From positions 41,947 through 105,946 of the forward strand of contig JAKAEB010000004.1 of the NCBI GenBank assembly GCA_021818445.1: DNA of 64,000 nucleotides. The letters are read 5' to 3'. The number at the start of each line of letters is the position of its first letter. Position 1 is the first letter of the stretch. The position numbers and the translations under genes were made by a program. The notes under the pieces were generated by a model, which worked only from the letters and a program-made list of their open reading frames with translations, did no database searches and was not told where the DNA came from. This DNA is from Planctomycetota bacterium (lineage in GTDB: Bacteria; Planctomycetota; Phycisphaerae; WQYP01). Below, piece after piece: positions 9,102-64,000 of the stretch.

Positions 9102-9199
9102 GCCCATGCCGAATCGCGTCCGTGCCCGTAGAATAACATGAGTTCGCGATAGGAAGTCATGGTTAACAAATGTTTCTGGCGATGTCTCAAGTTAACCAA

Positions 9200-9271
9200 G
9201 GTGACACAGGCATTCTTGCCTGTGATTTGGCTCGGAATAAAGCTCCACAGACAAGAATGTCTGTGCCACCA
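9200..9271. repeat. REPIN-like element: two inverted hairpins
   Basis: GGTGACACAGGCATTCTTGCCTGTG (9200-9224) and inverted CACAGACAAGAATGTCTGTGCCACC (9247-9271), each itself a 7-bp hairpin. Confidence 0.7.
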
Positions 9272-11294: not shown

Positions 11295-12200
11295 ATGGCA
11301 TCCACCCAACGATCTGGCAACACGGTTTTTTTGATCGGCGGCAAGTACAGCCGCCCGGGTGCTGCATTGGGAAAATTACTGGTGTTTGTCATTATTGCGC
11401 TCATTGTGGTGGTGGCGGGCTATTACATGTTTTCCAAACCGAAGCCCAACCCTGCCGAGGCGTATCCCACCAGCGCTAAAAAGATGATCAATCAATTCTT
11501 CCAGCTTATTTCCACCGGTACCACATCCGCCGACCAGAAGGCTTTCAAATTGCTTTCTTTGCCGATCCGCAAAATCCATCACAAGCATCCCGGGCGCTAT
11601 TGGCAGCGATTTGAGGATATGAATGTGTATCTGACCGATGTGTTCGGCACCACCTGGCCGGCCAATATTCGCATTGTTCATTCCACGAATCCGGAAAAGC
11701 CGGATGAATACATCGCGCATGTGCGAACCGAAGTGTTTCATATCACGGTGGCCAATCAGAACCGCTACGCCAGCGCGTTGCCCCATCCCCATTACGGCCT
11801 GGTGGCGATAAAAGAATTTTCCTTTTCTGGCGGTGCCCAGGCCCAGCGGGCGGCGGCCGGTTCCAGTGTGCTTGGGGCAATGGGGTTGCAGGGGGCGGCC
11901 AACAATGTGGCGGGCATATCGGCGGCGTACAGTGCGGTGGATAACCTCAAGCCGTGGCAGATCAAGCATCGCCTGCTGCCGGTGGTGCTGCATCCCCATG
12001 CTGCGGCCCTGCGGCAGTGCATATATCAGCTTTGGCCGGTGCGTAAAGACCCCACCGTCCGCATGGTGCTTAAGCAGATTGCCCACGACCCTCAATACGC
12101 GGTTAATATCCAGCAGGAAGCCCGGCATGTGCTGGCCGGGCATGTGTCAGATTCCACATTGATCGCCAATCAGGTGACGCACATTCATCCCAAATACTAG
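11295..12200 (+). CDS. Hypothetical membrane-anchored protein
   Basis: Long ORF with single N-terminal TM; no recognised domain. Confidence 0.7.
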   Translation: MASTQRSGNTVFLIGGKYSRPGAALGKLLVFVIIALIVVVAGYYMFSKPKPNPAEAYPTSAKKMINQFFQLISTGTTSADQKAFKLLSLPIRKIHHKHPGRYWQRFEDMNVYLTDVFGTTWPANIRIVHSTNPEKPDEYIAHVRTEVFHITVANQNRYASALPHPHYGLVAIKEFSFSGGAQAQRAAAGSSVLGAMGLQGAANNVAGISAAYSAVDNLKPWQIKHRLLPVVLHPHAAALRQCIYQLWPVRKDPTVRMVLKQIAHDPQYAVNIQQEARHVLAGHVSDSTLIANQVTHIHPKY

Positions 12201-12254: not shown

Positions 12255-12257
12255 TTG

Positions 12258-13231
12258 GCACGCTTCGCGGTGAACCAAGGTAACTATTTGCACCGCTGAG
12301 CGCCAAGGACGCGAAGACCAGCCAATCTGATTATTTCATATTTTTGTAATGCTATCCGCGGCTCTGCGCGAGATCGTAACTCTTCTCTGTGCGAGTTAAG
12401 GTGTCATGCCGTTGGCATGATGGAAGCTGTTTTTTTGGCGCGCAGAGAAAAGGAGCCACAGGGGTTAAGTCACGGAATCGTCCCCACCGTAGTGGCCAAA
12501 TCATGACAATTAGGCAGGTCCATATCCAATGTGCTTGGCGTTTCTTGGCGTCCTCTGCGATCTTTGCGGTGAACCAAGGTAACTATTGGCACCGCCAAGA
12601 GCGCCAAGGACGCAAAGACCGGCCAATCTGATTATTTCATATTTTTTTGTTTATCTTTGTATCTCGGTGGCTCTGTGCGAGGTATTAAGACCTCTCCGTG
12701 TGATATTAGGTGTCATGCCGTTGGCATGATGAAAGTTGCTTTTTTAGCGCACAGAGAAAAGGAGCTACAGGGGTTAAGTCACGAAATCGTCCCCACCGTA
12801 GTGGCCAAATCATGATAATTAGGCAGGTCCATATCCAATGTGCTTGGCGCTTCTTGGCGTCCTCCGCGCTTTGCGGTGAACCAAGGTAACTATTGGCACC
12901 GCCAAGAGCGCCAAGGACGCAAAGACCGGCCAATCTGATTATTTCATATGTTTTTAATTATTTCTGCGTCGCTGTGGCTCTGTGCGAGGTATTAAGACCT
13001 CTCCGTGTGATATTAGGTGTCATGCCGATGGCATGATGAAAGTTGTTTTTTGGCGCGCAGAGAAAAAGAGCCACAGGGGTTAAGTCACGGAATCGTCCCC
13101 ACCGTAGTGGCCAAATCATGACAATTAGGCAGGTCCATATCCAATGTGCTTGGCGTTTCTTGGCGTCCTCCGCGATCTTTGCGGTGAACCAAGGTAACTA
13201 TTGGCACCGCCAAGAGCGCCAAGGACGCGGG
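12258..13231 (+). repeat. Tandem repeat array 1, three palindrome-bearing units of about 308 bp (type-1 internal segment)
   Basis: TCATGCC-N3-GGCATGA at 12404, 12713, 13020 (spacing 309, 307); conserved flanks ...CTTGGCGTCCTC..TTTGCGGTGAACCAAGGTAACTATTGGCACCGCCAAGAGCGCCAAGGACGCAAAGACCGGCCAATCTGA. Confidence 0.93.
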
Positions 13232-43285: not shown

Positions 43286-45256
43286 TTGGCCGGAGTGTTG
43301 CAGCCCATTGCCAAGGAGGCGGCTATGGAGGCGAGACGACAAATTTCTCCAGCACAACGGCGCAGGCGCGCCCGCTGGGGATTGGCGGTTCTGATTTTGC
43401 TGCTCTCGGCGCTTGCCGCCACGGCCATGCAGACCGTCCGCGATCTGGGCACTGCCCTCCACAGGCAGGAATCCATCAGTACCCGTGCGCACGCCATCAC
43501 CCATCTGCAAAGCGCGGCCATGCTTTTGACGCAAACTCCCCTTGGTGCCTATTCACCCCGCAGCCGCATAGCGCTCGATGCGCTGACCGCGCTTCGCCGC
43601 GATCTGGCGACCGTGCCGCAATCGCATCTCTCCGCCTCGCTTAGATTTCACCTCGCGCGGGCCGCCGATCTGATTCGTCACATCGCCCGTCCACCCGTCA
43701 GCCGCCACACCGCGTTGTACATACAACGGCGGCAAAATGAGTTGTTAATGGAGGTCAATACCATCAACGTGCAATTGCGGCAGTTGGTGGCACAAGCACA
43801 AAGCCGCTCGGACCAAGCCATCCGCGACGCCCGCTGGTGGGGAGCTGCATTCGGTGTGATGCTGGTTATCACGCTTGTGCTGTTTCTGCTTCGCATGCTC
43901 GCGCAAGCTACCGCGCAGCGCCATACCGTAAAAAATCTCGCGTTTGAGTTGCAACGCGATCCGCTCACCGGCTGGGCCAATCGCGCCCTGTTTATCGACG
44001 CCATGGACCGCGGACTCTCGCAGGCGTTGCGTGCGCAGCGCCACGCCGGGACGCTGTTTCTGGACCTGGATCGTTTCAAAATTATCAATGACCGCTTCGG
44101 CCACGCCGCCGGAGATGAAGTGTTGCGCCAGATTACCCATCGCTTTTCTGCGGTAATCCGCTCCGGCGACCTGCCGGCCCGCGTAGGCGGTGACGAATTG
44201 GCCATCTTCATGCCCGATCTGCCCGATGACGCCGCCGCCGCCGAACTCGCACGCCGCCTTGTGGAATGTCTCAATGAACCCCTGATGGTCAATGGGTCGC
44301 CCATCGACGTCGGATTAAGCATCGGCATCGCCATCTTCCCGGCCAATGGGCAGTCCGCTGCCGAACTTCTCAACGCCGCCGATCAGGCTATGTACCGCGC
44401 CAAGCAGCAGGGAGGTGGCTATGCCTACCACACCGCCGCCGTAACTGCGCACGTGGCCCGGCAGCAGCAAATGGCCAAAGACCTGCACCTTGCCGTACGC
44501 GAAGACCAATTGTTTTGTATCTTTCAGCCCATTTTCGACGCCAAAACGCGTTACCCGGTCGCGGTGGAGGCGCTGGCCCGATGGCGGCATCCGGATTTGG
44601 GCGTGGTGGCACCCGCCGATTGGCTTCCATTGGCACAGCGGGCGGATTTGCTCGCCGGCTTTACCTCAACGATCATCGACCATGCCATCAAGGAATTGCC
44701 AGCATGGAAAAAACTTGGATGGTCACCACGAGTATCGATTAATCTTTCCGCCAGCGAGTGCCTCAACCCCCAACTGCCGGCGATCATCGCCGAAACTCTG
44801 CAAAAATCGGGCCTCAAGGGATCAGATATCGAACTTGAAATTACCGACGATATCCTCACCATGCCGGTGGCGATCGAAACTATTTCGCAGGTGAAAAAAC
44901 TCGGTGTCGGCATGACGATGGACGACACCAGCGGTGGCTACCCCAGTTTGCCTTCCATGAATCGCCTGCCATTGAACCGCTTGAAGGTGGATCGAGCCGC
45001 CATCGGGCAATTAACACGATCGGCGCGTGAACTGGAATTGTTTGCTGCGTTTGTCGCTTTGGCCCATCGAATGAGGTTGCAGGTCATCGCCGAAGGTGTG
45101 GAGACCGAAGCGCAGGCCAGCGTCATTCTTGCCGCCGATTGCGATCTGCTCCAGGGGCATTACTACGCCCCGGCCCAGGACGCGGAATTACTTTTGCGCC
45201 ATGTTCAGCAATTGACCAGCCGCGGGCAGCCAACACCCGCCGGCCGCTGGTTTTGA
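43286..45256 (+). CDS. Membrane GGDEF-EAL domain protein
   Basis: RVGGDELAIFMPDL; EALARWRHPDLG; LKVDRAAI; VIAEGVETEAQ. Confidence 0.93.
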   Translation: MAGVLQPIAKEAAMEARRQISPAQRRRRARWGLAVLILLLSALAATAMQTVRDLGTALHRQESISTRAHAITHLQSAAMLLTQTPLGAYSPRSRIALDALTALRRDLATVPQSHLSASLRFHLARAADLIRHIARPPVSRHTALYIQRRQNELLMEVNTINVQLRQLVAQAQSRSDQAIRDARWWGAAFGVMLVITLVLFLLRMLAQATAQRHTVKNLAFELQRDPLTGWANRALFIDAMDRGLSQALRAQRHAGTLFLDLDRFKIINDRFGHAAGDEVLRQITHRFSAVIRSGDLPARVGGDELAIFMPDLPDDAAAAELARRLVECLNEPLMVNGSPIDVGLSIGIAIFPANGQSAAELLNAADQAMYRAKQQGGGYAYHTAAVTAHVARQQQMAKDLHLAVREDQLFCIFQPIFDAKTRYPVAVEALARWRHPDLGVVAPADWLPLAQRADLLAGFTSTIIDHAIKELPAWKKLGWSPRVSINLSASECLNPQLPAIIAETLQKSGLKGSDIELEITDDILTMPVAIETISQVKKLGVGMTMDDTSGGYPSLPSMNRLPLNRLKVDRAAIGQLTRSARELELFAAFVALAHRMRLQVIAEGVETEAQASVILAADCDLLQGHYYAPAQDAELLLRHVQQLTSRGQPTPAGRWF

Positions 45257-45389: not shown

Positions 45390-45418
45390 GCTATATACCG
45401 CCCGCAGCGGGGCAGATA

Positions 45419-45650
45419 GCTACTTTGATTCACCGCAAAGGCCGCAGAGGACGCCAAGAAACGCCAAGCACATTGGATATGGACCTGCCCAATTGTCATG
45501 ATTTGGCCACTACGGTGGGGACGATTCCGTGACTTAGCCTCTGTGGCTCTTTTCTCTGCGCGCCAAAAAAGCAACTTTCATCATGCCAACGGCATGATAC
45601 CCTAACTCGCACGGGGAAGAGTTACGATCTCGCGCAGAGCCGCGGATACA
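45419..45650 (-). repeat. Repeat locus 2: single unit of the 308-bp family, inverted orientation, type-1 segment
   Basis: TCATGCCAACGGCATGA at 45581-45597; flanks are reverse complement of array 1. Confidence 0.92.
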
Positions 45651-45690
45651 ATTATAAATACAATATAACCACGCGGCAACGATTTAGCCG

Positions 45691-59020: not shown

Positions 59021-59524
59021 ATGGAAATTACCCTCGTAATTTTCAAGGAGGACGGGCAGAGAAGAGAGTTTATGCTTCACAAGCGAATCACTACGGTCGG
59101 TCGTGGTGAGGATTGCGATCTGCAGATACCATTGCCAACGGTTTCGCGAAAGCATTGCCTTATTGAGGTGCAGGATAACAACCCCGTCGTGGTTGATCTG
59201 GAAAGTTCCAATGGAACTTATTGCAACAATCAGCGTGTCACAACGGCGCAGCCATTGCTGCCCGGCGATTTAATACGCGTGGGGCCGGTGAGTTTTACGG
59301 TTTTAATTGACGGTGAACCAACCCAGATTAAACCGGTGCGCACCATTCTGGGCGATCAGGGCGTCGAACCGGTAAGCACATCGAAACCACCGGTGTCGGA
59401 TCACCAGACTGTCGATGTGGAAAATGAACCGGCTCAAAACAGGCCACCCCCGCACCCGCAACCGGAAGAGGATGACCCGATCGCCGCGCTGGAGCGTTTA
59501 TCGCGTGAGCACGACGACCCATAG
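59021..59524 (+). CDS. FHA-domain protein
   Basis: TTVGRGEDCDLQIPLPTVSRKHCLIEV..VVDLESSNGTYCNNQRV. Confidence 0.95.
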   Translation: MEITLVIFKEDGQRREFMLHKRITTVGRGEDCDLQIPLPTVSRKHCLIEVQDNNPVVVDLESSNGTYCNNQRVTTAQPLLPGDLIRVGPVSFTVLIDGEPTQIKPVRTILGDQGVEPVSTSKPPVSDHQTVDVENEPAQNRPPPHPQPEEDDPIAALERLSREHDDP

Positions 59525-59634
59525 CCGACGCATAATCCTTTCAGATCGTGACATCTTCTGTCAGTCGGGAAATCGGCCACATCGCTTTTAATAAATGATG
59601 TCGCATATTTAGTGCCCTTGACGGTGAAGAAAAC

Positions 59635-60868
59635 GATTCTGCACCGCCGAGCGCCAGGAAAGTAAAGACCGGCCAATCTGATTATTTCGTATTTTTTTCA
59701 TTGCCTCCGCGGCTCTGTGGCTCTGTGCGAGATCGTAACTCTTCTCTGTGGGAGTTAAGGTATCATGCCGTTGGCATGATGAAAGTTGCTTTTTTAGCGC
59801 ACAGAGAAAAGAGCCACAGAGGTTATATCACCGGAGTATTCACACTAAATTGGCCCAATCACGACAATTGCGCAGGTCCGTAGCCAATATGCTTGGCGTC
59901 TCTTGGCGTCCTCCGCGATCTTTGCGGTGAATCAGGTTAACTGTTTGCACCGCCGAGAGCGCCAAGAACGCAAAGACCGGCCAATCTGAGTATTTCATAT
60001 TTTCTTAATCGTCTCTGCGTGTCGGTGTCTCTGCGCGAGATCGTAACTCTTCTCTGTGCGAGTTAAGGCTTCATGCCGATGGCATGATGAACGTTGCTTT
60101 TTTTTGCGCACAGAGAAAAGAGCCACAGAGGTTATATCACCGGATCATTCGCACCATATTGGCCAAATCACGACAATTGGGCATGTCCGTAGCCAATATG
60201 CTCGGCGTCTCTTGGCGTCCTCCGCGCTCTTTGCGGTGAATCAGGTTAACTGTTTGCACCGCCAAGAGCGCCAAGAGCGCGAAGACCGGCCAATCTGAGT
60301 ATTTCGTATTTTTTTAGTTCTCTCCGTGGCTCCGCGGCTCTGCGCGAGGTCGTAACGCTTCTCTTTGCGAGTTAATGTTTCATGCCGCTGGCATGATGAT
60401 GTTTGTTTTTTTTGGCGCGCAGAGAAAAGGAGACACAGAGGTTGTGGCACTGGATCAATCTCGCGATTTTGGCCGCATCACGACAATTGGGCATGTCCGT
60501 AGCCAATATGCTTGGCGTCTCTTGGCGTCCTCCGCGATCTTTGCGGTGAATCAAAGTAACTATTGGCACCGCCGAGAGCGCCAAGAACGCAAAGACCGGC
60601 CAATCTGAGTATTTCGCATTTTTTTCATTGCCTCCGCGCGAGATCGTAACTCTTCTCTGTGCGAGTTAAGGTATCATGCCGCTGGCATGATGATGTTTGT
60701 TTTTTTTGGCGCACAGAGAAAAGGAGCCACAGAGGTTGTGGCATTGGATCAATCTCGCGATTTTGGCCGCGTCACGCCAATTGGGCAAGCCCATATCCAA
60801 TATGCTCGGCGTCTCTTGGCGTCCTCCACGCTCTTTGCGGTGAATCAGGGTAACTGTTTGCACCGCGC
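59635..60868 (+). repeat. Tandem repeat array 3, four palindrome-bearing units (type-2, 2, 3, 3 segments)
   Basis: TCATGCC-N3-GGCATGA at 59763, 60071, 60380, 60674 (spacing 308, 309, 294). Confidence 0.95.
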
Positions 60869-63390: not shown

Positions 63391-64000
63391 GCTAACTTTG
63401 CGAATCTCGCGGTGAATCAGGTTAACTATTTGCACCGCCGGGAGCGCGAAGAACGCGAAGACCGGCCAATCTGATTATTCGTCTTTTTTTAATTTTCTCT
63501 GTGTCTTTTTGGCTCTGCACGAGATCGTAACGCTTCTCTTTGCGAGTTAAGGTATCATGCCGATGGCATGATGAAAGTTGCTTTTTTAGCGCGCAGAGAA
63601 TAAGGAGCCACAGAGGTTGTGGCATTGGATCAATCTCGCGATTTTGGCCGCGTCATGATAATTGGGCAGGCCCATATCCAATATGCTCGGCGTCTCTTGG
63701 CGTCCTCCGCGCTTTGCGGTGAATCAGGGTAACTATTTGCACCGCCGGGAGCGCGAAGACCGGCCAATCTGATTATTCGTCTTTTTTTAATTTTCTCTGG
63801 GTCTTTTTGGCTCTGCGCGAGATCGTAACTCTTCTCTTTGCGAGTTAAGGTATCATGCCGTTGGCATGATGAAAGTTGTTTTTTTAGCGCACAGAGAAAA
63901 GGAGCCACAGGGGTTGTTTCACTGGATCAATCTCGCGATTTTGGCCGCGTCATGATAATTAGGCAGGCCCATATCCAATATGCTCGGCGTCTCTTGGCGT
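63391..64000 (+). repeat. Tandem repeat array 4, at least two palindrome-bearing units (type-3), runs off window
   Basis: TCATGCC-N3-GGCATGA at 63555 and 63853 (spacing 298). Confidence 0.93.

What the first reader, a model, noticed from the sequence alone, without database searches (positions are those of the whole stretch)
12258..13231. Tandem 308-bp composite repeat family with nested dyads
Seen directly: units of about 295-309 bp recur in tandem here, at 59635-60868 and 63391-64000, and singly at 45419-45650. Each unit contains two imperfect dyads. One is CTTGGCGTCCTC..CTTTGCGGTGAA / CACCGCCAAGAGCGCCAAGGACGCAAAG. The other is CTTCTCTGTGCG / GCGCACAGAGAAAAGGAGCC, enclosing a short perfect palindrome. 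Intergenic repeats with similar GGCGTCCTTGGCG/CTCTGTGGCTC vocabulary are recalled from several bacterial phyla, but a long ordered unit in tandem arrays is unlike simple REPs. Function unknown; BIME-like roles or a transcribed structured RNA are hypotheses.
Basis: partly seen in the sequence, partly recalled or inferred. Interest (0 to 1): 0.75.

Follow-up and report, generated by a model that had tools for sequence, protein, structure and literature searches.

The report
Tandem two-palindrome intergenic repeats, genome-wide
This bacterium carries about 80 copies of a roughly 309-base non-coding DNA unit, each holding two imperfect palindromes, chained head to tail at about 40 places between genes; it is a large, unusually ordered repeat family of a known general sort, and about a quarter of the chains sit in front of detached tips of toxin-type (Rhs) genes.

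Summary
Three head-to-tail arrays (A 12256-13231, C 59608-60866, D 63396 to the contig end) and one short inverted copy (B 45399-45674) share a unit of about 309 bp with two dyads: R1 (CTTGGCG/CTTTGCG words) and R2 (CTCTGTG words around the near-invariant TCATGCC-NNN-GGCATGA). The family is genome-wide: 97 matches in 31 contigs, resolved into 41 arrays and about 80 units. In 60 relatives only diverged R1/R2 pieces occur, mainly in two of three congeners.

It is non-coding, has no Rfam match, and shows no compensatory covariation and no G-U over A-C excess, so a conserved RNA fold is unsupported. Units in an array are each other's closest relatives far more often than chance (22 of 47; 1.5 expected): local tandem amplification. 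Arrays without a shared leader lie mostly between convergent genes (11 of 17). Eighteen arrays share a leader that in 11 cases runs into a short orphan Rhs-core ORF.

Best reading: a DNA-level composite interspersed repeat (BIME/BOX-like), amplified by recombination and acting as dispersed homology. How new arrays are seeded is unknown. R1 words recur in repeats of many phyla; the ordered unit appears lineage-specific.

The parts
12256..13231 (+). Array A: three units (12256-12540, 12540-12849, 12851-13155) plus a terminal R1 (13155-13231); between convergent genes ending at 12200 (+) and 13358 (-)
12534..12621 (+). R1 dyad of array A (others 12843-12927, 13149-13229)
12656..12773 (+). R2 dyad of array A with inner palindrome TCATGCC-GTT-GGCATGA (others 12355-12464, 12963-13079)
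45399..45674 (-). Array B: one partial unit in reverse orientation (R2, spacer, half R1); between convergent genes ending at 45256 (+) and 45707 (-)
59608..60866 (+). Array C: four units plus a terminal half R1; between convergent genes ending at 59524 (+) and 60874 (-). Absent at the orthologous junction in relatives G001 and G003
63396..64000 (+). Array D: two units, running off the contig end; its left side shares the end of the leader seen at other arrays

Best explanation
The units are a non-coding, DNA-level composite interspersed repeat built from two imperfect palindromes (R1, R2) joined by conserved spacers. Arrays grow and shrink by unequal recombination or slippage between tandem copies, and some arrays were copied together with a flanking block (leader plus orphan Rhs tip). 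Dispersed copies are tolerated mainly where they do little harm, at gene 3' ends between convergent genes and ahead of detached Rhs tips, and act as portable homology for rearrangement. Shown: copy number, tandem order, local amplification, placement, lack of RNA-type covariation, absence of array C from the orthologous site in relatives. Inferred: the recombination mechanism and the effect on rearrangement. Unknown: how new loci are seeded.
For: 97 matches in 31 contigs, 41 arrays and about 80 units. The closest relative lies in the same array for 22 of 47 units (1.5 expected); mean identity is 83% within arrays and 77% between. In arrays with the leader, some units match units of other such arrays best (L040#2 with L041#1, L043#1 with L046#1), as expected of block copying. 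Eighteen arrays share the leader and 11 of them run into an Rhs-core ORF. 11 of 17 leader-less arrays lie between convergent genes, against 17 of 108 other gaps (binomial p = 7e-6) or 4 of 53 gaps of at least 100 bp (the split by leader was made by hand). Array C is absent from the orthologous convergent junction in G001 and G003. The gene left of array A is directly followed in G001 and G002 by genes from the right of array B, so arrays A and B bound a 32-kb block that is not at this place there.
Against: No recombination event is seen directly. By hand count, four of five arrays tested (A, B, L055, L061; array C is the exception) mark a synteny break against G001, but about 6 of 18 other gene junctions do too, so this is only suggestive. 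Convergent placement can reflect tolerance alone. The strong conservation of R2's inner palindrome may mean a bound protein, that is a function beyond homology. The assembly is a draft that often breaks at these repeats, so array lengths and counts are minimum values.
Confidence: 0.55

Rival explanations
1. Non-autonomous mobile element: a transposase in trans (RAYT/Y1, or another IS) recognises the palindromes and moves single units, which then expand in tandem.
For: Dispersed to about 40 loci and absent from an orthologous site in relatives. Two Y1_Tnp genes are present. In other phyla the R1 words lie inside repeats that look like MITEs, for example a Chloroflexi MAG with CAGGGCTGTTCAGTTCT ends.
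Against: The palindromes flanking the C1 Y1_Tnp gene are of another type, and neither Y1_Tnp locus matches R1 or R2 beyond a 14-base chance-level hit. No common terminal inverted repeat at array ends and no target duplication could be seen; the empty sites are too diverged to judge. Array ends vary.
Confidence: 0.2
2. BIME-like functional element: R1/R2 bind a DNA protein (gyrase, IHF-like or other) and manage supercoiling or chromosome structure between convergent genes.
For: Strong enrichment between convergent genes; TCATGCC-NNN-GGCATGA stem nearly invariant in 46 R2 copies while the three central bases vary; R2 kept in G003.
Against: No binding data; about a third of the leader-less arrays and the Rhs-linked arrays lie elsewhere; one congener (G001) has no detectable copy.
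Confidence: 0.17
3. Transcribed structured RNA or transcription terminator.
For: Stable hairpins; placement at gene 3' ends; a T-run follows the inner R2 palindrome.
Against: No covariation above shuffles; G-U and A-C cells about equal; no Rfam hit; terminator-like sites 1 against 1.4 expected in array A and 4 against 1.7 (sd 1.4) in array C. Recent copies give limited power.
Confidence: 0.07
4. Integron attC array or CRISPR-like array.
For: Tandem order with dyads and a shared leader on one side of 18 arrays.
Against: No gene cassettes between units; no integron integrase above cut-off (best 74 bits, cut-off 265); the stretches between dyads are conserved, unlike CRISPR spacers; unit of 309 bp.
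Confidence: 0.01

Closest known systems
Pneumococcal BOX elements (PMC3049150)
   Same: Modular non-coding repeat with a variable number of internal modules in tandem, dispersed between genes, predicted to fold.
   Different: There only boxB repeats between boxA and boxC ends; here the whole two-palindrome unit of about 309 bp is repeated, and the ends are not fixed.
REP/BIME families, including the GTAG and CGTC super-families (PMC3733652, PMC2817692)
   Same: Palindromic, extragenic, high-copy, in clusters, targets of IS110-type elements (PMC1525189); an IS110 sits inside an R1 here.
   Different: REPs are 20-40 bp palindromes, often inverted pairs; here long direct tandem units with two different dyads, and no RAYT with matching flanks was found.
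MITEs
   Same: Non-coding, dispersed, palindrome-rich.
   Different: No terminal inverted repeats or target duplications seen; tandem arrays.
Orphan Rhs C-terminal tips
   Same: Short ORFs with the Rhs core followed by unrelated C-termini.
   Different: Here 11 carry a shared leader and a repeat array in front; most Rhs cores in this genome have no array.

Membership tests
REP/BIME | Small (20-40 bp) extragenic palindromes in high copy | tested here: not met
   R1 about 88 bp and R2 about 119 bp inside a 309-bp unit; extragenic and multi-copy is met
REP/BIME | RAYT gene flanked by the same palindromes | tested here: not met
   Two Y1_Tnp genes; flanks do not match R1 or R2
BOX-like composite repeat | Ordered modules with a variable number of tandem modules, dispersed | tested here: met
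   R1-R2 order kept; one to about five units per array
BOX (pneumococcal) | boxA and boxC ends by homology | not tested
   No BOX model was run; the organisation differs
MITE | Terminal inverted repeats and target-site duplication | tested here: inconclusive
   Array ends vary; empty sites in congeners too diverged to read a duplication
Integron attC array | Integron integrase and gene cassettes | tested here: not met
   No match above cut-off; no gene cassettes between units
Structured non-coding RNA | Compensatory covariation | tested here: not met
   power limited by recent copies
Rfam families | Score above gathering threshold | tested here: not met

The most novel reading that the evidence does not exclude
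The arrays are a portable recombination module: shared leader plus array ahead of orphan Rhs tips gives long homology by which tips are copied to new places and exchanged, so that the repeats drive diversification of the toxin tips and larger rearrangements.
Probability: 0.12. Interest if true: 0.75.

Novelty: new variant of a known kind. Interest (0 to 1): 0.5.

Why it matters
Most bacterial dispersed repeats are short; a 309-bp two-palindrome unit repeated in tandem at about 40 loci, with near-absence in close relatives, is a good case for watching how such families arise, expand and reshape a chromosome. The repeated link with orphan Rhs tips offers a testable role in toxin-tip turnover. 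The cross-phylum R1 words in unrelated repeats are an open question: no paper naming them was found in the held library.

Tried and rejected
Rfam at gathering and E = 1: nothing. Plasmid and phage collections: nothing. RNA fold: conserved but not covarying. Integron integrase: none above cut-off. RAYT flanks as source of R1/R2: no match. Target duplication at the array C empty site: intergenic DNA too diverged. Coding role: stop-free runs up to 208 aa occur in the arrays, but only a few short, weak-scoring frames were called in them; treated as non-coding, by inference. Literature search by motif words: no relevant paper. Viral-contig scans gave no answer. The host's name was not obtained; its own records seem to be left out of the named collection.

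Full report
Observation. The reported repeats are real. TRF gives two arrays of period 309; blastn and nhmmer add the reverse partial copy at 45.4 kb and the array at the window end. The window ends at the contig end, so the last array is cut. Each unit holds R1, an imperfect dyad of CTTGGCG and CTTTGCG words, and R2, a larger dyad of CTCTGTG words around TCATGCC-NNN-GGCATGA. Folding of the single strand is well below shuffles for R1 (z -5.8, -4.6) and less so for R2 (z -2.9, -1.9).

Extent. In the host assembly (3.71 Mb, 124 contigs) one unit gives 97 matches in 31 contigs. After fetching these regions, an nhmmer profile resolves 41 arrays with about 80 units and 25 kb of array DNA. Several arrays touch contig ends, so the true number is probably higher. 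In 60 relatives, two congeners have clear diverged R1/R2 pieces (G002, G003), G001 has none, and a few others have one or two short matches. G003 shows R1-R2 composites of its own.

Growth. Among 61 near-full units, identity is 83% within and 77% between arrays, and 22 of 47 units in multi-unit arrays have their closest relative in the same array, where 1.5 is expected. This is local tandem amplification. Other units match a unit in a different leader-bearing array best, as expected if some arrays were copied as blocks.

Placement. With a simple hexamer-based gene caller, 11 of 17 arrays without the shared leader lie between convergent genes, against 17 of 108 other gaps, or 4 of 53 gaps of at least 100 bp. 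Arrays A, B and C of the window are all of this kind. The caller is mine and approximate, and the split by leader was made by hand.

Leader and Rhs tips. Eighteen arrays share a conserved left flank. Read away from the array it holds a palindrome GCCGGGCTTGTCCCGGC, a promoter-like TTGCAC-N17-TATGTT (by eye), and an ATG that opens a short ORF with the Rhs core (...YYVRNRYYLPTLGRWLTRDPIGYQGGINLYEYVQSSPV) and an unrelated C-terminus. In 11 of the 18 a TIGR03696 match follows; two run off the contig, others continue into another repeat or lack a full core. The genome has 43 Rhs-core matches, most without an array; one (C101) has the leader joined to a neighbouring gene with only half an R1 left. 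So the array is frequent but not required at orphan tips.

Relatives at the same sites. Array C is missing from the orthologous convergent junction in G001 and G003. The gene left of array A is followed in G001 and G002 by genes that lie right of array B in the window, so inverted arrays A and B bound a 32-kb block absent from that place. Arrays at L055 and L061 also have neighbours that are not adjacent in G001. By hand count four of five tested arrays mark breaks, against about six of 18 other junctions; this is suggestive only.

RNA test. On 46 R2 and 40 R1 copies, 94-95% of cells pair, but covariation equals the shuffles (R2: 410 of 500, R1: 235 of 500 shuffles reach the observed score). 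G-U cells (76) and A-C cells (65) are about equal, so neither strand is favoured. The dyads look like DNA symmetry. Copies within one genome give limited power.

Other kinds. No Rfam match, no plasmid or phage match, no integron integrase above cut-off. Two Y1_Tnp genes exist, but neither locus carries R1 or R2. One full IS110-type gene (C100) lies inside an R1, and a second array (C96) abuts a remnant of the same element at the same point, in line with IS110 elements that target REPs (PMC1525189).

Wider vocabulary. A degenerate R1 arm pattern found 135 sites in named genomes of many phyla before the scan hit its limit; 50 have an inverted partner nearby, 37 of these outside long frames, while 50 sites lie in long open frames and may be coding. 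Some lie in elements that look like MITEs. No paper with these words was found.

Verdict. A composite interspersed repeat of the BOX/BIME kind in the broad sense, but with a longer, ordered, tandem unit; a new variant. The recombination mechanism is inferred; how new loci are seeded is unexplained.

Noticed in passing
window 9196-9269: A separate pair of short palindromes (ACAGGCATTCTTGCCTGT and ACAGACAAGAATGTCTGT) with many copies in congeners G002 and G003.
   Followed up: no
L053, L065, L041, L056, L057, L043, L066 and others: Orphan Rhs-tip ORFs that start MVA... just ahead of the Rhs core, with varied C-termini; 43 Rhs-core matches in a 3.7-Mb genome.
   Followed up: partly
L059 (C100) and L068 (C96): IS110-type element inserted in an R1 dyad, and a remnant of the same element abutting the same R1 point in another array.
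   Followed up: partly
L062 3045 and L064 3002, right flanks: Both arrays end at the same 30-bp sequence TTGGCTATAGATAAGGGGATGAAAAAAGAG; origin not identified.
   Followed up: no
L040, L041, L048, L054, L056, L057, L059, L063: Another repeat of about 250 bp, starting ATGGTCGTAGTTAATG in several copies, found after Rhs tips or directly after the leader.
   Followed up: partly
L085, L110, L121 and other JAJRVO contigs: A Chloroflexi MAG has MITE-like elements with CAGGGCTGTTCAGTTCT ends and an R1-type palindrome inside.
   Followed up: no
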